A stretch of DNA of 64,000 nt from Lanius collurio (taxonomy: Eukaryota; Chordata; Aves; Passeriformes; Laniidae). Under the pieces are notes generated by a model that saw only the letters and a list, made by a program, of their open reading frames with translations, searched no databases and had not been told where the DNA came from. The stretch is from assembly GCA_020086605.1 (NCBI GenBank), contig JACBWW010000052.1:79994-143993 (forward strand), written 5' to 3'. Shown one piece after another: positions 280 to 62,166 of this stretch. Both the position numbers and the translations under genes were made by a program. Numbering within the stretch: the first letter of the stretch is position 1; each line of letters opens with the position of its first letter.

Positions 280-607
280 GTATTTGTCATGAATGTAATT
301 GGTAAAGACTTAATATCCTCATTTTTGTTTTTATGCCACTTAGAAATCTACTTTAAAAGAGACAATGGAGGTTTCTGGGAGAAGCTTGCACACAAAAGAA
401 AAACATCCCTGAAACATCCCTTGTTTTAATTTTGCTGTGGACACTTTTTCAGTACCATGTGAGATGATAAAGGGGAGAAATGTGGTCTTGAGCTGTTGTC
501 ACTTAAGAAGCAGGAATTGAAAAAAGCTGCATAAAGCGCCATGACTAACAGGTCAAGAGAGGTGATTTCCCCCCTCTACTACACCCTGTGAACCTCCATT
601 TACAGTA
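280..607. other. Unassigned intergenic stretch
   Basis: I recognise no gene or repeat between the first LTR and the start of the CR1 homology. The short open frames here carry no motif. Confidence 0.5.
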
Positions 608-968
608 ATGGAACTCTGAGGTCCTAAACACAAGAAAGACGTGGACCTGTTTAGGGCAAGTCTAGAGGAGGCCCATGAAGATGATTGGATGGCTCGAGCA
701 TCTCTTCTCGTAAGAAAAGCTGACAGGGTTGGAGTTGTTCAGCCTGGAAAAGAAAAAGCTGTGGGGAGACCATAGAGGCCCTTCCAGTGCCTAAAGAGAA
801 TTTATAAAAAAGACAAAGGGAGAGACTTTTTTACCAGATTCTGTAGTGACAGGGTAAGGGTTTTAAACTGAAAGAGGACTGCTTCAAATCAGATGGAAGG
901 GCTGTGGTTTTTTACACTGAGAGCGGTAAGAAACTGGAACATATTGCCCAGAGATAGTATGGATGCCC
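608..968 (+). mobile_element. CR1 LINE 3' end, left piece
   Basis: This is recognisable CR1 tail sequence, including GGACCTGTTTAGGGCAAGTC, GTTGTTCAGCCTGGAAAAG and GAAACTGGAACATATTGCCC. It stops at ATGCCC (963-968) and resumes at 3486 with ATGCCCCATCACTGG, so the LTR element at 969-3485 was inserted into an existing CR1. CR1 is the dominant bird non-LTR retrotransposon; this copy is 5'-truncated and non-coding. Confidence 0.9.
963..968. repeat. Target-site duplication ATGCCC (left copy)
   Basis: ATGCCC directly precedes the 5' LTR and is repeated directly after the 3' LTR at 3486-3491. A 6-bp duplication is typical of class II (alpha/beta-like) retroviral integrases. Confidence 0.9.
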
Positions 969-1259
969 TGTGGAGGTGCCTCTCCCTGGGGTCCCGAGGG
1001 GAGGGACCCTGCAGGGTATGGGTCTGCCTCTGTCCCTGCTCCCATGTCATGTGTGCCCCATACCTGTTCCTGATTGGTTGGTTTGGATGCCCAGGGTCCA
1101 GGAAGAGAGAGGAGGGTCCCATGACTGGGTCTGCCTGGGAACTCCAGCCACGTGGCTGGAGGAATAAAAACATCCTTGAACATCTAAAGAAATATCGCTT
1201 TATCTTTCCTTCCAAGTTCATCACTGTCTTATACTTGTAAGGATTCCCTCATTACAACA
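969..1259 (+). repeat. 5' LTR of the Y-box ERV
   Basis: The LTR is 291 bp, begins TGTGGAGGTGCC and ends CATTACAACA. It contains an inverted CCAAT box (GATTGG near 1072), a 20-bp palindrome with a central CACGTG E-box (1142-1161), and an AATAAAAA element (1163) that could act as poly(A) signal or TATA-like box. Its partner is at 3200-3485. Confidence 0.9.
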
Positions 1260-1261
1260 AA

Positions 1262-1279
1262 TGGTGGAGATATGCAGAC
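1262..1279 (+). other. Putative primer-binding site
   Basis: TGG, the usual first three bases of a tRNA primer site, lies two bases after the 5' LTR, the standard retroviral spacing. The following bases (TGGAGATATGC) do not match a tRNA 3' end that I can name, so the site is decayed or uses an unusual primer. Confidence 0.45.
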
Positions 1280-1376
1280 ATTCGATCCCTGAAAACTATT
1301 TCTAAAGGTCCAGAGTACACTGATGTGAATTGTGAACTTTCTTATTGTCCTGTTTTTGGCTCTACTTTCTGACCAG

Positions 1377-1872
1377 ATGGAGAAATCAGAGAAGTTGTGG
1401 CTATCTGAGCCACAGAGAAAAATGTACTTGGAAGTGAAAGAAATTCTAGTGAAACAAAATGCAAAACTGAACCCAGGAGATTTAGAACACTTTTTTAACT
1501 GGCTTTTCAAAAATTTCTTGTATAATTTTTGATGTTGGTTTTCCTGTGACTAGAGGGGACAATTTTTGGAAAGAAATCAATGAGTTGATAATGATCCAGT
1601 CAAGAAGTGGAATGGCAGTAGAATTGATACTAACATCTTTTGCAATTGAAGATGCGCTCATAAAGCATATACTCAGTCCCAGTAACACAGAGGTGCCTGC
1701 GGCTGAGGTGCCTTCAGTGGAGGTGCCCAGCCCCCTAAAAGCACAAGCTGTAGAGCAGACCCCACCCCTGTATCGGAGTGCACTCCCGAGCGACAGCGGG
1801 CGAGAGAGTGATGATGAAGACGCTGGATGGGAGAGTGCATTTCTAGGGGTCTCCGAGGTATTCTTACAGTGA
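1377..1872 (+). pseudogene. gag: Broken gag fragment: matrix region and PPxY late-domain motif
   Basis: Coding starts at the ATG at 1377 (purine at -3). The first 51 codons, with motifs WLSEPQRK and HFFNWLFKNF, look like the matrix domain of alpha/beta-type retroviral Gag. That frame ends at a TGA (1530-1532) after a T-rich stretch. The homologous reading continues in the +1 frame from 1546 (FWKEINELI) to a stop at 1870-1872, so there is at least one frameshift. In the second frame PPLY (1762-1773) fits the PPxY late-domain motif that recruits NEDD4-type ligases for budding, followed by an acidic Ser/Asp/Glu stretch. Gag normally continues into capsid and nucleocapsid; neither is visible. The fragment cannot encode a working Gag as it stands. 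Confidence 0.7.
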
Positions 1873-2480
1873 ATAAAGGACAGCTAGTAGAAAAAGCTGC
1901 TGATAAACACAAAAAGCAAGCCGCAAGAGCAGAGGCACAAGTGGCGAGGGCAGCAGCGGCAGAGGCGTGTCCCGGCGATGGCCACCCTGCGCGGCGTGGT
2001 GAACGACGATCTGAGCCCAAGCCTCACACTGAGAAAGCCAGCGGTGATAGCGGCAGTTGCTATGGCGACCGTGGTGCGCCACACCAAACAGAGCCTGAGC
2101 GGTGTGGGGGTAAGAAGGAAACCGCACTAACACCCAGCAGCGACGCAGCCGATAGCAGCAGCAGCGATGGCAGTGCTGGCGGTACAAAGCTGCGCACACG
2201 TGCTGGAACAGAACGCCTCACGGGGCGCGGCCGTGCAGCCGTGCAAACGCCCAGAAAGCATGGAGCAGCAATCACGCAGAGTTCCAGAGGAGAAGTGAGC
2301 ACAGCGCCAAGCAGCGGTGCACATGTGGCCAAAGGCGGAGCAGCCAGCAACGGTGGAGTGCAGCAGCATGGCCAGACTGGACCCACGCAGCCCCACACAC
2401 GATCCTGAGGAGTCAAGACCCTGCGGCATGAATGCGCTGGAGGCCCTGGTCCCGGCGGTCCTGGCTGTGGCAGCTCCAGC
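1860..2480 (+). other. GC-rich Ala/Arg/Ser/Gly-rich coding segment between gag and the cold-shock domain
   Basis: Frame 0 is open from about 1827 to a TGA at 2406-2408 and then open again into the cold-shock domain. The predicted protein starts with a Lys/Ala-rich helix-like stretch (AADKHKKQAARAEAQ), then becomes rich in Ser, Gly, Ala, Thr and Arg with many GC-rich codons, and ends after the TGA in a Gly/Pro-rich run (GGPGPGGPG). Vertebrate Y-box proteins carry an Ala/Pro/Gly-rich N-terminal region just before the cold-shock domain, so the last part may be captured host sequence. The origin of the rest is unknown. Whether this was once one continuous Gag/Y-box fusion is inferred from the shared frame. 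Confidence 0.5.
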
Positions 2481-2903
2481 GTGAGAGCAAGCAAAACTGA
2501 AAGTGAAAGCAAGAACAAAGGAACTTGGAAAAATGAAAAGTTTATCACAGCTAGGGTTTTCGGAACTGTAAAATGGTATAATATAAAGAAAAATTATGGT
2601 TTCTTATCGAGAATAGATACTGGAGAGAGTATTTTTGTCCATAAATCTGCTATTGTGAAAAATAACCCCAAAAGCTTAGAACAAGGAGAAAGAGTAGATT
2701 TTAAAATTGTGCAGGGAAGAAAGGGTCCACAAGCAGCATGTGTTACAGGGCCTGGGAGTGTCCCTGTGCAAAGCAGTAGATATGCTAGACAATATCTCCA
2801 TAATCCCTATCCTTTCCCCTATCCCACCTTTCCCTTTTATCCCATGCCCCTTTATCTCTCATATATGCCCAGCCCAAATTTCCCTTTCTGGTTCCCCTCA
2901 TAA
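2481..2903 (+). CDS. Cold-shock-domain (Y-box-like) protein inside the ERV
   Basis: The open frame of 140 codons shares its frame with the upstream GC-rich segment across one TGA (2406). The first codon given here is GTG and no upstream ATG in this frame clearly marks a start, so the true start is uncertain and the frame may once have been the end of a longer fusion. A full cold-shock domain spans about 2550-2760. It has GTVKWY (Trp at 2574), KNYGFLSR (RNP1, Phe at 2601) and IFVHKSAI (RNP2, Phe and His at 2634 and 2640). The nucleic-acid-contacting aromatic and His residues of the family are therefore kept. It ends with VTGPGSVPVQSSRYA, the Y-box version of the domain boundary, which separates it from bacterial Csp and LIN28. 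A tail of about 35 residues rich in Pro, Tyr and Phe follows and replaces the basic/acidic repeats of cellular Y-box proteins. Expected role, from the family: RNA or single-stranded DNA binding. Expression is unknown. Confidence 0.8.
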   Translation: MRASKTESESKNKGTWKNEKFITARVFGTVKWYNIKKNYGFLSRIDTGESIFVHKSAIVKNNPKSLEQGERVDFKIVQGRKGPQAACVTGPGSVPVQSSRYARQYLHNPYPFPYPTFPFYPMPLYLSYMPSPNFPFWFPS

Positions 2904-3199
2904 AACCAGGATTTTCCATTTGCCATGAATCCCTTTGCAATGCTGATGGGAGGATAAAAAGGAGGGAGGGAAGAAATTAACTGTTTTTTTCTAAGATTCC
3001 AACAGGCAGAGAAAAGAAAACCCTCTCCTGACTCAGTTTCCATCTGAAGCATGCTCAAGTCCTGTCTCCCTTCTGAATCTCCAAAGAAAATCTGTTTGGA
3101 CATTTGGGGACTCATGATAGTGGCTTCCTTTCCTTTGAAATTGTTTTGTTGTTTATCAAACTGTTTCCAATGTTCTTTATTTAAAAAGAAAGGGTGAAT
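2904..3199 (+). other. Non-coding 3' region and polypurine tract of the Y-box ERV
   Basis: This follows the TAA of the cold-shock frame. It ends in the purine-rich AAAAAGAAAGGGTGAA immediately before the 3' LTR, which fits the plus-strand primer (polypurine tract). No env or other retroviral coding is visible. Confidence 0.7.
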
Positions 3200-3485
3200 T
3201 GTGGAGGTGCCTCTCCCTGGGGTCCCGAGGGGAGGAACCCTGCAGGGTACAGGTCTGTCTCTGTCCCTGTCCCCATGTCACGTGCGCCCCGTACCTGTTC
3301 CTGATTGGGTGGTTTGGGCGCCTGGGACCCGAGGAGAGAGAGAGGGTCCCATGACTGGGTCTGCCTGGGAACTCCAGCCATGCGGCTGGAGGAATAAAAA
3401 CATCCCTGAACATCTAAAGAAATATTGCTTCATCTTTCCTTCCAAGTTCATCGCTGTCTTGTTGTAAGGATTCCCCATTACAACA
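3200..3485 (+). repeat. 3' LTR of the Y-box ERV
   Basis: The LTR is 286 bp, begins TGTGGAGGTGCC and ends CATTACAACA, homologous along its length to 969-1259. The palindrome of the 5' LTR is broken at its centre here (CCATGCGG instead of CCACGTGG). ATGCCC follows at 3486. Confidence 0.9.
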
Positions 3486-3634
3486 ATGCCCCATCACTGG
3501 ACGTGTTCAAGGACAGGTTGGATGGGACTTTGAGAAGCCTGATACAATGGAAGGTGTACCTGTCCACAGCAGGGGCTTGGAACTAGATAATTTTTAAGGT
3601 TTCTTCCAACCAAAAACATTTTATGATTCTATGA
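3486..3634 (+). mobile_element. CR1 LINE 3' end, right piece
   Basis: This continues the CR1 interrupted at 968 and ends in the typical CR1 tail (AAGGTTTCTTCCAACC... TTATGATTCTATGA). The first six bases are the second copy of the ATGCCC target duplication. Confidence 0.9.
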
Positions 3635-3662
3635 AGAGTAAATAAATTCCACTCTGCCTAGA

Positions 3663-3775
3663 TGTATTGGTTTTGCATGGCCTGGTTTTTGGTAGCAAGG
3701 GGAGCGACAGAGGTGGCTTCTGAGAGAAGCTGCTGGAAGCTTTCACCATGTCTGGAATCACTCAGTCGTTTATAT
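3663..3775 (+). mobile_element. ERVL-type LTR fragment (5' end)
   Basis: TGTATTGGTTTTGCATGGCC, followed by GGTAGCAAGGGGAGCGACAG and GTGGCTTCTGAGAGAAGCTG, is the start of a very common avian ERVL-type LTR. The homology is lost soon after. The antisense counterpart of the same LTR start occurs near 9040-9130. Confidence 0.6.
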
Positions 3776-4577
3776 AACACGCTGGTATATGAAACTAAGA
3801 AAAATGTGTGTGCCTTTTGTTCTTATGTACTTTTTAATTCTCTGCTAAGAAAAACCTTTTAAAAACTCTATGCTGGTTAGCATCTGCAAAATCTACTTTT
3901 CTGCTTAAAATTTTAATGCATTGAATTCTGCCTTTGCAATTTTGTAGCTGCTGCTTGGGCCTTGTGTGTAACTTTCTATTTACTGCCAGCTCCATGGAAG
4001 TTCAAAGCTGCTACTTTTAGCATAGCCACAGGGGGTTGGGGTTTCAGATTTGGTATGCTATACATTTTCTGTAAAAAATAACGGAAGATTGATTCTCTTG
4101 TCTAGAAACCTCAGGACATTTATTTCATAATCTTACTGGATAAAGCATTCTAGGCATGTAATCATTTGAGATGCCTCATAGACAAGAAGAAATTAGTGCT
4201 GTTAAACAGGGGTGTTGCTAATATTGATGGGCAGATACTTATCGCTTTGTGATTCCTACTAGAGTGATGTATCCTTAGAGATGCCCAAGAGTGCAGGAAG
4301 CAAGGAATGATGAATTTAGAAAGATACTTTTGATAATGTCTTTGTTGTTCTACTGAATTATTAAGGGCTACCTTGACTTGAGTGCTCTAGGTGTCTATCA
4401 GATACCCTCCAGCAAACACCCAGGTAAAACACCCTCAGGTCATAACCCTGTGGTAAGCATGACACGATGTGTCACAGCCCTGGGGTTCTTACAAGTGAAG
4501 GTGTTAAAGTCTGTCCCATCCTGCTGTAAAAGGGAGGCTGGGAAAGATTCTGATAGATTTCTTGGACAAAAATAAAG
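3776..4577. other. Intergenic, nothing recognised
   Basis: AT-rich sequence without a recognisable gene, RNA or repeat. Confidence 0.5.
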
Positions 4578-6421: not shown

Positions 6422-6905
6422 TGTCGGGGTTTGACACTGACTAGAAGCCAGGCACCCATGAAAAACTATCCACATATTTTCCTCTGCTATAGATGAACAG
6501 AGGAGGAGAAAGTAAAAAGAAAACTTCATGAGTTAAGGCAAAATAGGTTCAAAACTTAAAACAGTATAAAGAAAATTTATTATTAACAGAATTAAAAGTA
6601 AAAAGGGTAATGAGAACTAAAATAAACCTTTAAAACACTTACTTTCTTCCCAGCCCCTCCCTCTTTCCTACCAACTGTGCAGAGACAAACATAGGGCTTT
6701 TGGTCAGTCTTTCACTTCCTAGTAATCTTTCTTCAGTATGCTCAGGGAAGTGTTTATTTCTCGTGCTGTGCCGTGGTATCCTTCCCATGGGAGGCTGTTC
6801 TCTTTGAATTTTCTAGTGTGGTCTTAATTTTCACGAATAGCAGCTCACCTGACCTGCTGTAACTTGAGTCCCTCCCACGACCAGTGCAGGCTTCCCAAAA
6901 CTGCA
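6422..6905 (-). mobile_element. ERVL-type LTR, antisense, first piece
   Basis: TGTCGGGGTTTGACACTGAC is the reverse complement of the GTCAAACC...GACA end of the avian ERVL-type LTR. The antisense poly(A) region (AATTTATTATTAACAG) follows near 6575. Homology is lost near 6905 and resumes near 8320, so the LTR appears split by later DNA that includes the complete LTR at 7168-7933. Confidence 0.65.
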
Positions 6906-7167: not shown

Positions 7168-7933
7168 TGTTATATATAGGTCAAAATTCATAAGAAATTA
7201 AAATGCTATAAATGGAATAAGTTATTAATGTGGAATCCAAAATGTGAAATATATCTTGTAAATTGTATATATGTTTAAATTAGTTGTGTTCAGAGTACAC
7301 CTTGGCAAGTCTCATGACATCTTGCTCAAGGAAGGTACTAATTAACATAAGAAGTGCAGGCAAGCTCAGGGGAGATGACCTCAGACCCATCAACCTCCTA
7401 TGATTTCATCTTACCCAACAAGAATCTTTTCCATCTGAAAGAAGTAAGAGATAGGATCTGCGGCTCCTTGGACATTGCTGATGAGTGGACCTATTGCTCG
7501 AGACACTTCATTCTAATCATATAAGGATTTCTCGGAAAGATCATCATATGCTGAGATGAGTTACTGGAAACCATCAACCAGAGCACAAAGAGAATCCTTG
7601 GACAAATCAACATCTAAATGGACCACTGAGCACTGGGCCAGAGGATCATCAGAAGTGAAAAGGACAAAAGATTTCCTAGCCAGGAGCAAGAAAAACAGTA
7701 TAAAAACTGGACTCAAACACCTCAAAGGTGTGTGCTTACCTCTTTGAACTGCTGGTGGTCAGAGCTGTGTATGTGTCACCCAGAGTTAAGGACCTAGGCT
7801 TGGCCCTGTTTTCCTTTATAGTGGCTTATTAAGATTGTCAATTTGGTTAAAATAAATTTTATTTTATTTTTATATTAATAATTTGGCTTGCGCAAATTAT
7901 TAATTCCAGGAAATTGACATTTCATTTATAACA
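7168..7933 (+). mobile_element. Solo LTR, class I-like, family B (copy 1)
   Basis: This is a complete 766-bp solo LTR with inverted termini TGTTAT...ATAACA and a 4-bp duplication GAAT (7164-7167 and 7934-7937). It has a TATA box (AGTATAAAAACTGG near 7698) and AATAAA near 7851. A second copy lies in the opposite orientation at 61424-62166, with shared blocks such as GTCAAAATTCATAA near the start and AATTTGGC near the end. A 4-bp duplication fits class I (gamma-like) ERVs. Confidence 0.8.
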
Positions 7934-22105: not shown

Positions 22106-22935
22106 TCACTTGTAGTGCTTCACTAGTAGCTTGTTAAAAATGCAAAGAATAATGTCATCATTTCTGTTACAATGAATATCTTGACATTCACACCACTGGA
22201 TGCCTGAAGGAGTATACCTTGAGCTGCAGAGGTGTTGGGTGCTGGTGTCCCAGCTTGCAGCTCTCCTGCCCCTTTGGCCACTGATGCTGAATGTGCAGTG
22301 TGTACAAGCCCTCTGCACTATAGTTTTTGTAGTAATTAGTAGATCATTTACATATTGTAGGAGTGTTCCCTCCCCAGGCAGAGACTGCCATTGTTCCAAT
22401 TCTTTGGCCAATTGATTCCCAGAAATTGTAGGGTTTTGAATCCCTGAGGTAACACCATCCAGGTAAGTTGATTCTTCTTGCCTGAGATAGGGTTCTCCCC
22501 ATTCAAAAGCAAGGATGTTTTGACTTTCTTCTGCAAGTGGCAGGCAGAATAAAGTGTCTTTGATATCTATCACCGAGAGCCAGATGAGATTACCTCGGAG
22601 TTTAGTTAGCAAAGTGCAGGGATTTGCAACCTCTGGGTGGATACTTTCAGCAATCCCATTGACTGCTCAGAAATCTTGCACTAATCTATAAGTTCCATTA
22701 GGTTTTTTTCACGGGTAGGATATTAAATTCAGATTCACATTCTTTCAACAGTCCTAGTGTCAAAAATTTGCTAATAATTTGTTCAATCCCTTTTCTGTTC
22801 TCTATTCTAAAGGGATATTGCCTCCTAACTACTGGCGTGGTTCCCGTCTGTAATTCAATCTTTATAGGGTCAGCCAATTTTGATCTCCCAGAAGCATTGG
22901 TATTGCATACTCCTGGATATACCTGATTCATTATT
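22106..22935 (-). pseudogene. pol: ERV reverse-transcriptase fragment
   Basis: Minus-strand frames carry the N-terminal RT region (RKGIEQIISKFLTLGLLKEC), the LVQDF...AVN block, LPQGFK in another frame, and YVNDLL where the YxDD active site is expected. One catalytic Asp is thus replaced by Asn. A stop sits inside the LVQDF-AVN block, and frameshifts separate LPQGFK from YVND. The motif set is gammaretrovirus-like (class I). RNase H, integrase and env are not seen downstream. The gene is dead. Confidence 0.8.
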
Positions 22936-29008: not shown

Positions 29009-29012
29009 GATG

Positions 29013-29369
29013 NNNNNNNNNNNNNNNNNNNNNNNNNNNNNNNNNNNNNNNNNNNNNNNNNNNNNNNNNNNNNNNNNNNNNNNNNNNNNNNNNNNNNNNN
29101 NNNNNNNNNNNNNNNNNNNNNNNNNNNNNNNNNNNNNNNNNNNNNNNNNNNNNNNNNNNNNNNNNNNNNNNNNNNNNNNNNNNNNNNNNNNNNNNNNNNN
29201 NNNNNNNNNNNNNNNNNNNNNNNNNNNNNNNNNNNNNNNNNNNNNNNNNNNNNNNNNNNNNNNNNNNNNNNNNNNNNNNNNNNNNNNNNNNNNNNNNNNN
29301 NNNNNNNNNNNNNNNNNNNNNNNNNNNNNNNNNNNNNNNNNNNNNNNNNNNNNNNNNNNNNNNNNNNNN
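29013..29369. other. Assembly gap (357 N)
   Basis: Unknown bases; the frame that appears to run through it is meaningless. Confidence 1.
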
Positions 29370-29384
29370 GCTCTGTTCTGTCTA

Positions 29385-29466: not shown

Positions 29467-30084
29467 ATCAGACTCTTGCTCCCGATTTCCATCACCTGCC
29501 CCTCACATGGCCTGGCTGCAGGTCTCTCTTACATAGTAGGTCTATCAGCTGTCTCGGAAGCCTTAATGGGAGCAGAAAGCCTGCCACATAGTTCGCACAT
29601 CAGTGGCAGAATGGGTCAGCTCTGTCACACTGAATTTTGGCTGCAATAGCAGCTGTTTCAACATGAAGCTCCTAATACTCACTTTTAAGTTCTCCTTACA
29701 GGTTTACTATACCAATTATAACAGTGCTGTTGAGACAGTGCGACTGAGATTGCATTGGCCTCCTGATTTCATAGCATTTCACGAAGTCCTACATTTTAAT
29801 TTGATTTCTTCTGCCATAAGCCCGAGCTCTTCCAATGTTCCTGCATATCTTTATTATTGCTGGTGTGTGTGGTGTGTGTAATGTGTGAAACGGCTGTGCT
29901 GACTCATCACCTCGAACTCAACAGGAACGGGAGATCCTGGGTTGGTGTGCAGCCTTGCCAGGAAAGGCATAATGTGTTAAATAGCCTCTAAATCATACAA
30001 CACGTTTAGATTTGGGTGTTTTTGTGAGCATCTTGGAACGATGAGAGGTTGAGTTTCTGAACGCAGTGCCTCAGCGAGTGAGGT
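29467..30084. other. APP upstream flank
   Basis: Non-coding and AT-rich up to the CpG island. It contains a short GT-rich repeat (about 29860-29886) and a TGACTCA AP-1-type site at 29900-29906, about 470 bases before the presumed APP start. AP-1 sites are known in the human APP promoter region, but the relation here is not shown. Confidence 0.4.
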
Positions 30085-30263
30085 CAGTGCATGGAGGCGT
30101 CGCCGTCCCTGCGGACGCAGGCGGCGGACAGGCGGTGCGGTGTCTTCGAGGAAGGTTACCGGTGGTACCCGAGCGGCTGAGGAGAGAACGCTGCTGAGAA
30201 CCACCAAGGGCAGGGAAGGCCCAGCCCGCCTGCCGTGAGCCACGGCCGCACCACCCGGGCGCT

Positions 30264-30275
30264 GCCGCCAGGGGT
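30264..30275 (+). promoter_or_regulatory. APP: CTCF-type site (APP promoter APB-beta equivalent)
   Basis: GCCGCCAGGGGT lies about 95-105 bases before the presumed start. The human APP promoter has GCCGCTAGGGGT at about -82, the APB-beta element bound by CTCF and needed for much of its activity. Sequence, position and order relative to the E-box match. Binding here is inferred. Confidence 0.65.
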
Positions 30276-30288
30276 CCCCGTGGTCTGG

Positions 30289-30318
30289 GCGGGCGTACCG
30301 CCCGCTCGGGGGCGGGCC
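30289..30318. promoter_or_regulatory. APP: GC-boxes with a 7-bp GC palindrome
   Basis: GCGGGCG-TAC-CGCCCGC (30289-30305) is a perfect inverted repeat of GC-box-like sequence, followed by GGGGGCGGGCC (about 30308-30318), a strong Sp1-type box. Both lie between the CTCF-type and E-box elements. Confidence 0.6.
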
Positions 30319-30323
30319 GGGCC

Positions 30324-30333
30324 ATCAGCTGAC
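30324..30333 (+). promoter_or_regulatory. APP: E-box/USF site (APP promoter APB-alpha equivalent)
   Basis: ATCAGCTGAC in a GGGCCGGG context matches the human APP APB-alpha element (GGGCCGGATCAGCTGAC), known to bind USF. It sits about 40-47 bases before the presumed start, as in human. Confidence 0.7.
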
Positions 30334-30370
30334 CGGCCCCGCCGCGCCGCTCCCGGAGCCGCAGCAGAGC

Positions 30371-30540
30371 AGTCGTTTTCTTCGGCAGTGGTGCGGCCCC
30401 GAGGATTTACAGTCGGACTCCGGCGTGTCTCCCCGGCCGGCATCCCTCCTTCCCCCCCTCCTTCCCCGCTCCCGACCGCGGCGATGCTGCCCCACTTAGC
30501 CGTCCTGCTGCTGGCCGCCGGCGCCGCCCGGGCTCTCGAG
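30371..30540 (+). other. APP: APP exon 1 (5' UTR and signal-peptide codons)
   Basis: AGTCGTTTTCTTCGGCAGTG (30371-) resembles the human APP start TCAGTTTCCTCGGCAGCGG, so transcription probably starts near 30371. This gives a 5' UTR of about 113 bases with no upstream ATG, GC-rich and ending in a pyrimidine-rich stretch. The exon ends at GAG with the consensus donor GTAAGC (30541). Confidence 0.8.
30484..30540 (+). CDS. APP: Amyloid-beta precursor protein, exon 1 coding part (partial)
   Basis: Nineteen codons run from ATG at 30484 (context GCGGCGATGC, G at -3) to the splice donor GAG|GTAAGC, phase 0. The peptide is a clean signal sequence: Met-Leu-Pro-His, a Leu/Ala/Val core (LAVLLLAAGAA), then ARALE. 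Human APP exon 1 encodes exactly 19 residues with the same ends (MLP... ARALE). By comparison 15 of 19 residues agree; differences are at positions 4, 7, 13 and 14. APP is a type I membrane protein processed by secretases, with roles in neuronal adhesion, synapse function and signalling. The signal peptide directs it into the ER and is removed. Only this exon lies in the window; exon 2 is expected beyond 64000. The promoter elements support the call independently. Confidence 0.9.
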
Positions 30541-30964
30541 GTAAGCGGGGCAGGAAGCGGCAAGCAGGGGCTTCCCCGCCACATTATGCCGCTTCTCCGA
30601 GGCTTTGTCTGTCTGCAGCCGCTCCCGCGGCGTGGGCTCAGCCGCGGCGGGGCGGGCGAGGTTTGCTTTCCCAGGGATACTCTATCCCCAGCTGCCCCCG
30701 TTCTCCCTTCGCCGAACAATAGGAACGGCAAGCCGGGGGATGGCGGAGGCATGGGGGAGGGAGCAGGCTGGGAACTCCTGGGGCTGGCGCTCTTGGCCGT
30801 GCTGCGCGTGTCTGGCGCTGCCCCGATAACTTCGGCCACCGCCCGCCCACGGGCAATGCTGCGTAGGGACGGCAGAGGCGCCGGCTCTGCCTTGGGGTTG
30901 CCTCCGCCAGGGGCTGGAGAAGGGAACCTTCCCCCGCGAAGCAGACACGCCACGGGCAGGTGAC

Positions 30965-31100
30965 CCGGTGGCATCCCCCCATGGAACGGGGGCTAGGGGC
31001 GCGTAGCCAGACTGCGAGCGGGGAACGGGGGGGCGTCCCCCGGGGAGGGAAGCAAAGCTGGTCTGCGGAGCCGGTGGCATACCCCCATGGGGCGGGGGCC
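30965..31100. repeat. Repeated CCGGTGGCAT block in the intronic CpG island
   Basis: A stretch of about 30 bases (CCGGTGGCATCCCCCCATGG..CGGGGGC) at 30965 recurs at 31071 with few changes. The sequence between does not repeat well, so this is a short duplicated block rather than a proper minisatellite. Confidence 0.6.
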
Positions 31101-34100
31101 GGGCTGCGGGTGGGGGTAGCGCAGGTGTGCGGGCCGGCGGCCGGAGCTCTCCGCCTGCTGGCGCAGTGGCCCCGCGGGAAGGCGGTGCCCGGGGGGCGGT
31201 GGTCGAGGCCGGCCTGAGCCCCCCCGTGGGCCGGCGGCGCGGAGGCGCGGGAAGATGGCGCCTCTGCAGTGCAGCAGAGAGGAGGCGCCGACAGCCCGCG
31301 CCCCTCTGCCGCCGCCCCTGCCCGCCCTCTTTCCTTCCCTCCCCGGGGCGCCTCCACCAGCCCCGGCCGAGCGGCATCTTCGCCGGATCCCCAGTCTAAA
31401 TGGGGCGGAGGATGGGGGTCCCCCTGTGCCCTCCCTCCGCGTGGGAGTGTGCGCTCACCGCGGTCCCTGCAGGGTGGACTAAAGCAAGCTCCAACCCCAC
31501 AGGAGTTGGCACAGCTCGGTGTCGGTTCTCCCCCCCCCCCTCCAGATCTTAAAAAGAAGGTGTGGGAGGGGTGAGTCACCTCCTAGTCTCCTTTGCTCCC
31601 TGCTTGCCATACTTCGGCCTGAAGACCTCGGCCTCCCGTGTCGATCCCCGCTTTTCCCGGGGGATCAGGAACTGGGTGGGGGTGAGGTGGACGACGGTAT
31701 TCTGCCTGATAGCAGAGACGGCTGCTCGTGGTCCCTGCCAGGGCATGGGGATGCAGGTCTGTGGGTCAGGTGCCCTTCCCAGGAGGGACTTAAATACGCC
31801 ATGAATAAGACGAGGCAGCTTCATACCAGCGCTCCGTCCCTGCAGCCAAGGCTGCCAGCCACAGGCTCTTGCTTTGAGGCATGATCTTGACAACATCGAA
31901 CATGATGTATCAAGCTGAGCAGTTCTAGAGATGCTCAGACGCTTAAAGCTTCCAGTTACAGGACTCGTTGGGGTTTTAGCAGCTTCTTGCAACCATTTGT
32001 TGTCTGAATGCAATAGAAAGAAATGTCTGCCTAGGGTGTGTAGCTTAAGTAAAAAATGAAATTTTATGGTTGAGACCATGCTTCAGGATAGACTATAGAA
32101 GGATGGGCTTTTCTGTTGGGTCCTTATAGCCCTAGCCTTACAGATAAGTGTGTAGGTGTTTCCACTGCAAAGGTGCTGGAAGAAAGGAGGGGCTTGCATT
32201 TTGCACCAGAACTTTCAGGAGGACTGAACATCTGTGCTTAGAGACCTCTGCAATGGTGTCTGCCTTAGTGATAGCCAGAATTCTGAGAGACATTTTTTGC
32301 CTGGAAATGGGCACTGATGTTTCTACAGAAGCTTTCCTGTCTTCTGTCATTCCATGTGAATGTTTGAGGTTTGGCATTTATCTCTTTTCTTTATGTTTTA
32401 TGGTGGAGTAGGTTTAAACATCTGGTGGTCTTGTGATAAGCCATTTTTTGGTCTTGATTATCTAAGGTTGATGTTTTGAGCAAGCCACATGTTTTTATAA
32501 CACTAAGATATTTCATAATAGAAATAGTGTGTGTGCATGTTCTGCACTTGAACTATCATTTTATGCTAAAGGGTGGAATTTTAATGTTAGAATTCTATTT
32601 TCTGTAGATCTCTTTTCTGAAATGAGGTGTTTTTCCTGCCATTTTAACAGATACTTTCTGGAAAGCAGCAAAGAATCTGTACTTTTCTTTCCTTGGGAAA
32701 TGATATAAGGCAAAAAAAGCAGGAACAAAACAAATCCTATCTGTTTTACACATGAGGAATTCCTCTCTAAAATTACTGGTAGATTAATAGTGATTTAGCA
32801 TCTTTAAAGGAAATATTCTGTAGTGGTATCTCGGTGATTCCATGGTTGCTTAGCATTTTACTTCTGACACTCATGTGACTCATACTCACTGGCGTTAGGA
32901 AATATTGGCCAAGAGGTGTCATGGTTTGTGAAACTGCCATATTCTGCAGTAGCTATTTTTGCATTTAATGTTTTTCAGTAATTGTCTGGTCTTAGTAGAT
33001 AAATGCAACAGACATTAACTATCATTGTGAATTTGCATGGATGATCCTGGTTTATAAATCATTTCCTCTCATTAGCATACTGAGGTTTCTGCCATGTCTC
33101 CTCTGCTTGCTGGTCTAGCTCCCTGTTTCTAAACAAGACTCCTTTACCAGCTGACTAAAATGAAATTGTTAAGATATTGGTATCTCATAATCTGCCCCTC
33201 AGAAAAAAGACAAAAAGGATGTTGCTTGACAGTGTTTTTCTTTAAGCTGGGTAATGTAGTGCTCTTGTTTATGTTATTCTGGCATTGTTTGGTTATTTTT
33301 TTAGGAGAAGGCCCCAAATATTTGTTTCTTCATTCTTTAGTTTCCTAGTAAATCTTTCAAGAAATGACATTTAAATGTGGGAAGGGGAGCAAAGCCTTTA
33401 CTTCTATTACAGACTTTCAGTTCCTCTTTCTGTCGATTCTGTTCCCAAATTCCCCTGGCAAAGGTTTGCATTTGTTGCAGGATCCCTTTTGCACTTTAAT
33501 TTAAGATGCTGCCACGGGGTGGGTGGCTGAGTGGCTACATAGGGCAGGCTCTCTGGGATCATCAGAATCCTTGGCAGTCAGGTGGACAAATGAGTGAGTA
33601 AAGAAAAGCGTCTCCCTTTCTTTCTCATTTGTCTTTTGTTTGATTGATGAGCAACAGTCAATTTTGAGACTTGCATGATCTTCAGGTGCCTTTTCTGTGG
33701 AAAAAAACATGATCAACTGCTGTGCTTCTTCCCAAAACATGTATGAAAACCTGAGGAAGCTAACAAGATCTTCATGTTTTTAAATTTTATTTTCCTTCCC
33801 CATGGGCTCTTTGTGTGACAGATGTAAACCATTTCCCTTATCCACTTTTAATTGATCAGTGATGAATTGCAGGGCAAAACTACAAGAAGCATAGATCTCC
33901 TTTGGCTCTTCATGACTTGCTGTTTGCATGTGTTTAATAAACTGTGAAGGATAATAAACAGTTTGATTTATAAGTTGTATGAAGAAAAGGAATGACAATT
34001 TCTTGTAATTAGTAGCTTGTTTCCAATACAAAGCTTAGCAAAATACCTGAAGAGCGTAGTAACTTAATCTAATTGCTTGACGAAATGACAGATGTTACTC

Positions 34101-61423: not shown

Positions 61424-62166
61424 TGTTACGTATAAAGTGCCAATTAAATCGAATTAATAATTTGCATGAGCCAAATTATTAATATAAAAATGAACAGAAT
61501 TTATTTCACGATCAATTAACAATTTCGGATAGCCACTTTCAAACGGCAGGGTCAAGCCTAGGTTCTTGACCCTGAGTGCCACATACACAGCTCTGAACAC
61601 CAGCAGTTCCAGAGTGGCAGTGCACACCCTCCAGGTTTCTGAGTCTAGTTTTTATACTGTTTTTTTTGCCGCAGGCTAGAGAATCCTTTGTCTCTTTCAT
61701 ATTCAGCTTGTTCTCCATGGTTCCTCTGGTATAAAGAATAGAGGTCCGTCCAGGTGTTGATATCCCAGGAACTCCCTTTGTGTAGTTGAAACAAAGGGTC
61801 TTGGGCAAGAAGTCTGTTCTCCGTCACTTATAGTCTAGGGAGGAACAAAAAACCCAGATGGTCATATCTGTTGCTCTTTTCAGATGGAGAAAGGATTCTC
61901 CAGGGGCAGAGTGGGTTTGATTAGATTAGTGTGCCAGATGGATATCTGGCTTCCCAAGGTGGGTCCTCCAGGTTCTGCCTGTACTTCAGATGCAAATGTT
62001 ATCACCGGGTGGGGTAGCCCTTGGCTCTGGGTGGGCTGCCAGGGAACATACCAAAGCACATTCCAAACATACTAATCTTTAAAATATGTACACTCTAATA
62101 TCCCTTATACTTAAATTGACCTTGATACCATTTAATTTTATTATGAATTTTGACTTATTTTTAACA
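61424..62166 (-). mobile_element. Solo LTR, class I-like, family B (copy 2)
   Basis: On the minus strand it starts TGTTAAAAATAAGTC and ends ACGTAACA (743 bp), flanked by a 4-bp duplication TCTT (61420-61423, 62167-62170). It has a TATA box (AGTATAAAAAC on the minus strand, near 61655) and AATAAATTC downstream. Homologous along its length to 7168-7933, antisense to APP. Confidence 0.85.

What the first reader, a model, noticed from the sequence alone, without database searches (positions are those of the whole stretch)
969..3485. A retroviral element that swapped capsid, nucleocapsid and enzymes for a host-like cold-shock domain
Seen: paired LTRs with an exact 6-bp duplication, a broken gag start, no pol or env, and an intact Y-box-type cold-shock domain in the place of the rest of the genome. 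Known: Y-box proteins (YBX1-3) bind mRNA and single-stranded nucleic acid through this domain; retroviral Gag binds RNA through nucleocapsid. Inference: a non-autonomous ERV captured a spliced Y-box mRNA, and the cold-shock domain might substitute for nucleocapsid in RNA binding or packaging, or alter host mRNA handling. I know of no described avian ERV with this layout.
Basis: partly seen in the sequence, partly recalled or inferred. Interest (0 to 1): 0.88.

Follow-up and report, generated by a model that had tools for sequence, protein, structure and literature searches.

The report
Endogenous retrovirus carrying a cold-shock domain
A small, broken, ancient retrovirus-like element has, in place of most of its own genes, a piece of a host-type RNA-binding (Y-box) gene that seems to have evolved inside the element for a long time; whether other copies exist could not be checked here.

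Summary
The observation largely holds. A 2,517-bp LTR element lies at 969-3485: LTRs 969-1259 and 3200-3485 (90.9% identical), ATGCCC duplicated on both sides. The frame 2409-2903 encodes a Y-box-type cold-shock domain (Pfam E 1.4e-21; YB-1 48 of 85 identical). I saw no pol or env. 'Gag' is unconfirmed: no convincing match in Pfam, PDB, the protein database or viral contigs, though open frames tile 1377-2903 (apart from two frame changes and one TGA) as if one ancestral frame ended in the domain.

A later processed pseudogene is unlikely: no poly(A), no flanking 9-mer repeat, and divergence from YB-1 too large for the LTR divergence. With 7 of 8 RNA-contact residues kept, this suggests replication with the domain before insertion. 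The 5' LTR has an exact Y-box, the only one in 64 kb, perhaps chance.

Whether a multi-copy family exists was not tested: the genome search did not complete (14 tries). Best reading: a non-autonomous ERV that captured a spliced Y-box mRNA, a new variant of host-gene capture; replacement of nucleocapsid is plausible but unproven.

The parts
963..968 (+). 5' copy of target-site duplication ATGCCC
969..1259 (+). 5' LTR, TGTGG...ACAACA, 291 bp
   Evidence: 90.9% identical to the 3' LTR
1070..1081 (+). exact Y-box motif CTGATTGGTTGG in the 5' LTR (consensus CTGATTGGYYRR is recalled)
   Evidence: only full match on either strand of the 64-kb window; 20 of 20000 first-order Markov LTRs contain one
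1163..1168 (+). AATAAA, candidate poly(A) signal in the 5' LTR (also at 3393 in the 3' LTR)
1262..1279 (+). position where a primer-binding site is expected, starts TGG; matches no tRNA end that I recall
   Evidence: sequence; tRNA comparison from memory only
1377..1529 (+). first gag-like frame (frame 0), ends in a TGA at 1530-1532; gag identity not confirmed
   Evidence: no family match
1516..1869 (+). second gag-like piece (frame 1), 0 stops in 113 codons over 1530-1870, with PPLY (late-domain-like by recall) at 1762-1773
   Evidence: no family match
1873..2405 (+). GC-rich (60-65%) S/G/R-rich stretch, open in frame 0 up to a TGA at 2406-2408; origin unknown
2409..2903 (+). open frame with the Y-box cold-shock domain; TAA at 2901-2903
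2535..2789 (+). stretch aligned to YB-1, 48 of 85 residues identical, 4-residue in-frame deletion
2790..2900 (+). Tyr/Pro/Phe-rich tail in place of the Y-box proteins' charged C-terminal domain
3183..3194 (+). purine run before the 3' LTR, candidate polypurine tract
   Evidence: sequence
3200..3485 (+). 3' LTR, 286 bp; Y-box core CTGATTGG at 3301-3308
3486..3491 (+). 3' copy of target-site duplication

Best explanation
It is an old, non-autonomous LTR retroelement whose retroviral ancestor captured a spliced Y-box mRNA (class not assigned; a 6-bp duplication would fit alpha/beta-like ERVs by recall). Shown: LTR pair, duplication, uninterrupted Y-box cold-shock domain on the same strand; no pol or env seen. 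Suggested: the domain was the 3' end of one long frame that began just after the leader, so the product was a fusion of a short Gag-like start, a PPLY motif, a probably disordered linker, the cold-shock domain and a Tyr/Pro/Phe tail. Inferred: enzymes and particles came from a helper retrovirus, and the fusion protein bound the element's own RNA (and perhaps host mRNA), stabilising it or helping it into helper particles, in the way that host YB-1 assists MMTV assembly. My confidence in capture and replication with the domain is about 0.65; in the RNA-binding aid to replication about 0.35.
For: LTRs, duplication. Cold-shock domain E 1.4e-21, YB-1 best. Frame openness, 0 of 1000 shuffles. No poly(A), no flanking repeat. 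Protein identity to YB-1 48 of 85, while zebrafish YB-1 and another YB-1 entry (6lms; species not given in the call, human by recall) are identical over the aligned stretch; neutral change of 0.05 and of 0.10 per site gave identity this low in 0 of 1000 runs each, and the two LTRs differ by K2P 0.10 in total. 7 of 8 RNA-contact residues kept; only 46 of 4000 neutral runs ended stop-free with at least 7 kept. Frame tiling. Host YB-1 co-localises with MMTV Gag and RNA, and its knockdown lowers particle output (PMC4486188, passages read).
Against: No second copy was seen: protein database, viral contigs, bacterial/archaeal contigs; none of these is a collection of vertebrate genomes. Gag identity not confirmed. 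One of 8 contact residues (E121) is changed. Codon-position signals agree with the tiling only in part (see full report). The single-sequence structure model is poor (pLDDT 45.9) and says nothing. If the source was a fast-evolving Y-box paralogue rather than YB-1, the argument for long evolution in the element weakens.
Confidence: 0.6

Rival explanations
1. The captured Y-box protein acted on transcription: it bound the Y-box in the element's own LTR and tuned expression (autoregulation).
For: Exact Y-box CTGATTGGTTGG in the 5' LTR, the only full match in the window; of 4 core matches in 64 kb, 2 are the LTR pair. In 20000 first-order Markov LTRs the full motif appeared in 20 and the core in 503. 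Reports that YB-1 binds RSV and other viral promoters (PMC6040738, passage).
Against: The motif is also a CCAAT box, bound by NF-Y and common in LTRs (recalled); the same paper's passage says later studies opposed the Y-box binding claim. The 3' LTR has the core only. The motif was looked for after the domain was known.
Confidence: 0.15
2. A one-off capture: the domain is a passenger that was never of use and this is a dead single copy.
For: No other copy seen in the collections that answered.
Against: Divergence from YB-1 is far above what fits since insertion, with frame and contact residues kept; those collections are not of vertebrate genomes.
Confidence: 0.15
3. The source was not YB-1 itself but a fast-evolving host Y-box paralogue, captured rather recently; the divergence is the host gene's.
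For: No vertebrate gene set could be searched, so it is not excluded; the Tyr/Pro/Phe tail is unlike YB-1's C-terminal domain.
Against: The two Y-box proteins seen in the PDB alignments are conserved (YB-1 vs YBX2 80 of 87). A-rich composition of 2481-2760 (40% A) is rather retrovirus-like (recalled).
Confidence: 0.2
4. A processed Y-box pseudogene that landed inside an ERV already in place.
For: Uninterrupted Y-box sequence.
Against: No A-run of 6 or more starting in 2402-3200, no exact repeat of 9 or more between 2301-2560 and 2891-3200; 0 of 1000 neutral runs at 0.05 and at 0.10 per site reach the observed divergence; same strand, and in frame with the open stretch upstream.
Confidence: 0.04
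5. The 5' part is not gag at all: the whole long frame is a captured host transcript and only LTRs and leader are retroviral.
For: No convincing gag match in any search.
Against: Position after the leader, and only a recalled likeness to matrix proteins and to a PPxY late motif; single-sequence searches can miss degraded gag pieces.
Confidence: 0.15

Closest known systems
Crocodilian ERVs with captured KIT-ligand (CrocERV29) and nectin3 (CrocERV31), PMC4299795 (passages, including parts of the abstract)
   Same: ERV carrying a host mRNA between its LTRs; nectin3 in six insertions of one species; purifying selection reported; nectin3 protein of one consensus about 76% identical to the host protein
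   Different: Those lost only env (nectin3) or no domain (KIT-ligand); the captured proteins are a ligand and a surface adhesion molecule, not an RNA-binding domain; here no pol or env was seen and only one copy is known
Acute transforming retroviruses with gag-onc fusions (recalled)
   Same: 5' gag piece fused to a captured cellular coding sequence, helper-dependent
   Different: Here the gene is a Y-box RNA-binding domain that has diverged greatly, and gag itself is unconfirmed
YB-1 / Y-box proteins (PDB 6a6j, 6lms, 7f3i)
   Same: Cold-shock domain, 48 of 85 identical to YB-1, 7 of 8 RNA-contact residues
   Different: 4-residue in-frame deletion in the domain; Tyr/Pro/Phe tail instead of the charged C-terminal domain; inside an LTR element
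MMTV, a betaretrovirus that uses host YB-1 in assembly (PMC4486188, passages)
   Same: Retroviral RNA and Gag work with a Y-box protein
   Different: MMTV borrows the host protein in trans; here the domain would be encoded by the element

Membership tests
LTR retroelement / ERV insertion | paired LTRs with TG...CA ends | tested here: met
LTR retroelement / ERV insertion | target-site duplication | tested here: met
   ATGCCC on both sides
LTR retroelement / ERV insertion | primer-binding site complementary to a tRNA | tested here: inconclusive
   TGG at 1262, no tRNA recognised, comparison from memory only
Class II (alpha/beta-like) ERV | recognisable class II gag or pol | tested here: not met
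   only the 6-bp duplication (recalled criterion) points there, so not filed as class II
Y-box protein family | Y-box-type cold-shock domain | tested here: met
Y-box protein family | basic/acidic repeat C-terminal domain | tested here: not met
   tail is Tyr/Pro/Phe-rich; so a Y-box-type domain, not a whole Y-box protein
Host-gene-capturing ERV family | several copies with same layout and own duplications | not tested
   The genome search did not complete (14 calls)
Host-gene-capturing ERV family | captured sequence intron-free and on the element's strand | tested here: met
   uninterrupted domain on + strand; that Y-box genes have introns there is recalled
Processed pseudogene inside an ERV | poly(A) tail and own target duplication | tested here: not met

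The most novel reading that the evidence does not exclude
A spreading family of minimal retroelements whose single protein joins a matrix-like start, a late-domain motif and a Y-box cold-shock domain, the last replacing nucleocapsid in binding the element's RNA for packaging by a helper, perhaps with self-regulation through the Y-box in its LTR.
Probability: 0.22. Interest if true: 0.82.

Novelty: new variant of a known kind. Interest (0 to 1): 0.6.

Why it matters
Retroviruses that carry host genes are known mostly with growth-control or surface-protein genes (recalled; two cases read). A captured RNA-binding domain that has evolved inside the element would be a natural experiment on whether a cellular RNA-binding fold can stand in for nucleocapsid, and would tie to the reported roles of host YB-1 in MMTV and HIV replication. 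I saw no description of it in the paper listings, two of which were cut (15 of 37 and 10 of 81 papers listed).

Tried and rejected
Other copies: the protein database gave 12 candidates, none at E 0.001; viral contigs gave none for the domain (4 pattern hits, none confirmed), for a 34-bp LTR word, for the gag-like piece (11 pattern hits, none confirmed) or for the GC-rich middle (9, none confirmed); genome contigs gave none for a 22-bp LTR word or the domain (47 pattern hits, none confirmed). These are mainly bacterial, archaeal and viral collections, so the misses say little. In the rest of the window (501-4100 masked) the element had one match, 42 bp at 6721-6762, E 0.001, which I take for chance.

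Gag: pieces searched apart, no convincing hit. One search listed 146 sequences (60 shown, mostly designed ankyrin-repeat proteins, scores summed over repeats); no stretch of the 60 passed by itself; rejected as chance.

Structure: one single-sequence model, mean pLDDT 45.9, not used further. Rfam on the window: no match. Pfam on six other window frames: no match at E 0.1.

Empty site: I joined the flanks and misread the hit's coordinates by 3,900 (also in note 1); corrected (13178-13026, minus strand, 115 of 153 identical). The joined flank adds only 3 bases beyond the duplication to what the 3' flank gives alone, and the 5' flank alone matched nothing in the window, so this shows a repeat (CR1-like by recall) at the target, not a strong empty-site proof. 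One search's attempt at this alignment used the wrong coordinates and is void.

Source gene: YB-1 48 of 85, YBX2 44 of 83; of the 7 sites where the two differ the element has the YB-1 letter at 4, the YBX2 letter at 1, neither at 1 and a gap at 1. YBX3 was not compared by any search. No firm assignment.

Papers: 'cold shock' and 'Y-box' occur 0 times in the main texts of PMC4299795, PMC11905727, PMC11009239 and PMC4272516 (find searches).

Full report
What is there. The element runs from 969 to 3485, flanked by ATGCCC at 963-968 and 3486-3491. The LTRs are 291 and 286 bp, start TGTGG and end ACAACA; over 286 aligned positions they differ at 26 (25 transitions, 1 transversion; 9 in CpG context), K2P 0.10. 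With assumed rates of 1.5 to 3.3e-9 per site and year (my assumption, put into the script) that is about 15 to 33 million years. The 3' flank belongs to a repeat that recurs at 13178-13026 on the minus strand (115 of 153 identical); I take it for a CR1 tail from memory. CR1 occurs in birds and reptiles (recalled), and no tool named the host.

The cold-shock domain. The frame 2409-2903 (164 codons) has Pfam CSD with E 1.4e-21; its best solved relatives are YB-1 and YBX2. Identity to YB-1 is 48 of 85, with a clean 4-residue deletion. Of the eight residues named as key to RNA binding in YB-1 (K64, W65, Y72, F74, F85, H87, K118, E121; PMC9928419, passages read), seven are kept and E121 is Q. None of 1000 dinucleotide shuffles gave so long an open run. 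After the domain comes a Tyr/Pro/Phe-rich tail, not the highly charged C-terminal domain described for YB-1 (PMC6040738, passage).

Upstream of the domain. Stop-free stretches follow each other: frame 0 over 1377-1520 (0 stops in 48 codons), frame 1 over 1530-1870 (0 in 113), frame 0 over 1873-2405 (0 in 82 and in 95 for its two parts), then after a TGA frame 0 to 2900 (over 2409-2480 and 2761-2900 frame 1 is stop-free too). The purine bias at codon position 1 agrees with frame 0 in 2121-2405 (0.73 against 0.57 and 0.49) and in the domain (0.77 against 0.60 and 0.57) and with frame 1 in 1530-1870 (0.66 against 0.56 and 0.46). It does not agree in 1377-1520 (0.54 against 0.55 and 0.70), 2409-2480 (0.62 against 0.65 and 0.26) or the tail (0.26 against 0.39 and 0.22), and hardly separates frames 0 and 1 in 1873-2120 (0.68, 0.67). 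The RNY share favours the proposed frame in 2121-2405, 2409-2480 and the domain, but not in 1377-1520, 1530-1870 or the tail, and is equal in 1873-2120. The open run in 1873-2408 alone is only mildly unusual: a run of 177 or more came up in 20 of 1000 shuffles. So the tiling suggests, without proving, one ancestral frame from the leader to the tail, since broken by two frame changes and stops. The 5' part looks like a matrix start with a PPLY motif at 1762-1773 only by recalled likeness; the family searches of its pieces gave nothing convincing.

Not a later pseudogene. There is no A-run of six or more starting in 2402-3200, and no exact repeat of nine or more between 2301-2560 and 2891-3200. 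If the domain had come from YB-1 after the ERV inserted, it should have kept on average about 90% (0.05 changes per site) or 81% (0.10) of its residues; identity of 56% or less came up in 0 of 1000 neutral runs at each of these levels, in 3 of 1000 at 0.15, 9 at 0.20, 196 at 0.25 and 660 at 0.30. The LTRs' total of 0.10 means about 0.05 on each. So most of the change happened before insertion, or the source was not YB-1-like in conservation. Neutral change to the observed identity left the domain stop-free in 977 of 4000 runs and with at least seven contacts kept in 175, both in 46. This supports, without proving, that the domain was in use while the element replicated. The simulations use random synonymous codons and a guessed 70% transition share.

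How it might work. Without pol and env the element needed a helper. The simplest role for an RNA-binding domain at the end of a Gag-like protein is to hold the element's RNA. [quoted passage not shown] YB-1 depletion lowered HIV-1 replication ten-fold (PMC6040738, abstract start and passages). A second possibility is suggested by the LTR: an exact Y-box at 1070-1081, the only one in the window, and its core in the 3' LTR; a full motif appeared in 20 and the core in 503 of 20000 random LTRs made by a first-order Markov model of the 5' LTR. It was noticed after the fact and contains a CCAAT box, so I rate it low.

What is known. Host-gene capture by ERVs is established, for example KIT-ligand and nectin3 in crocodilians (PMC4299795, passages). 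A Y-box capture did not show in my searches (listings only, two of them cut; four papers checked by find searches). Repeat libraries such as Repbase and most subscription papers were not searchable, so a described repeat of this kind may exist.

Limits. The one decisive test, other copies in the host genome, could not be run: 14 identical requests to the genome search did not complete. The collections that did answer are not of vertebrate genomes.

Noticed in passing
window 22109-22666 (-): Possible remnant of another retroelement: a frame with a weak reverse-transcriptase match (RVT_1, E 0.0061, 16.7 bits, below Pfam's cut-off of 29.6).
   Followed up: partly
window 969-1259 and 3200-3485: LTR differences are 25 transitions to 1 transversion, of which 9 of 26 lie in CpG context; the strong bias is not explained.
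   Followed up: no
window 1881-2480: GC-rich, CpG-rich (observed/expected 0.81 and 0.69) middle of an otherwise CpG-poor element (0 to 0.5 elsewhere); origin unknown, perhaps the first exon of the captured gene.
   Followed up: partly
window 2904-2957: After the TAA the same frame reads on for 17 codons in a Phe/Pro/Met-rich style to the next stop, so the first stop may be a late change.
   Followed up: no
window 30001-32000: CpG-island-like stretch (68% GC) with a signal-peptide-like start in a + frame (by eye), perhaps the first exon of a host gene.
   Followed up: no
window about 29010-29370: A run of unknown bases (357 N in the window) beside a GGAAG-type short repeat (read from the translations): assembly gap.
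   Followed up: no
window 7656-7933 and 61424-61699: Two pairs of inverted repeats 80% complementary (153 and 71 nt), probably two copies of one dispersed repeat.
   Followed up: no
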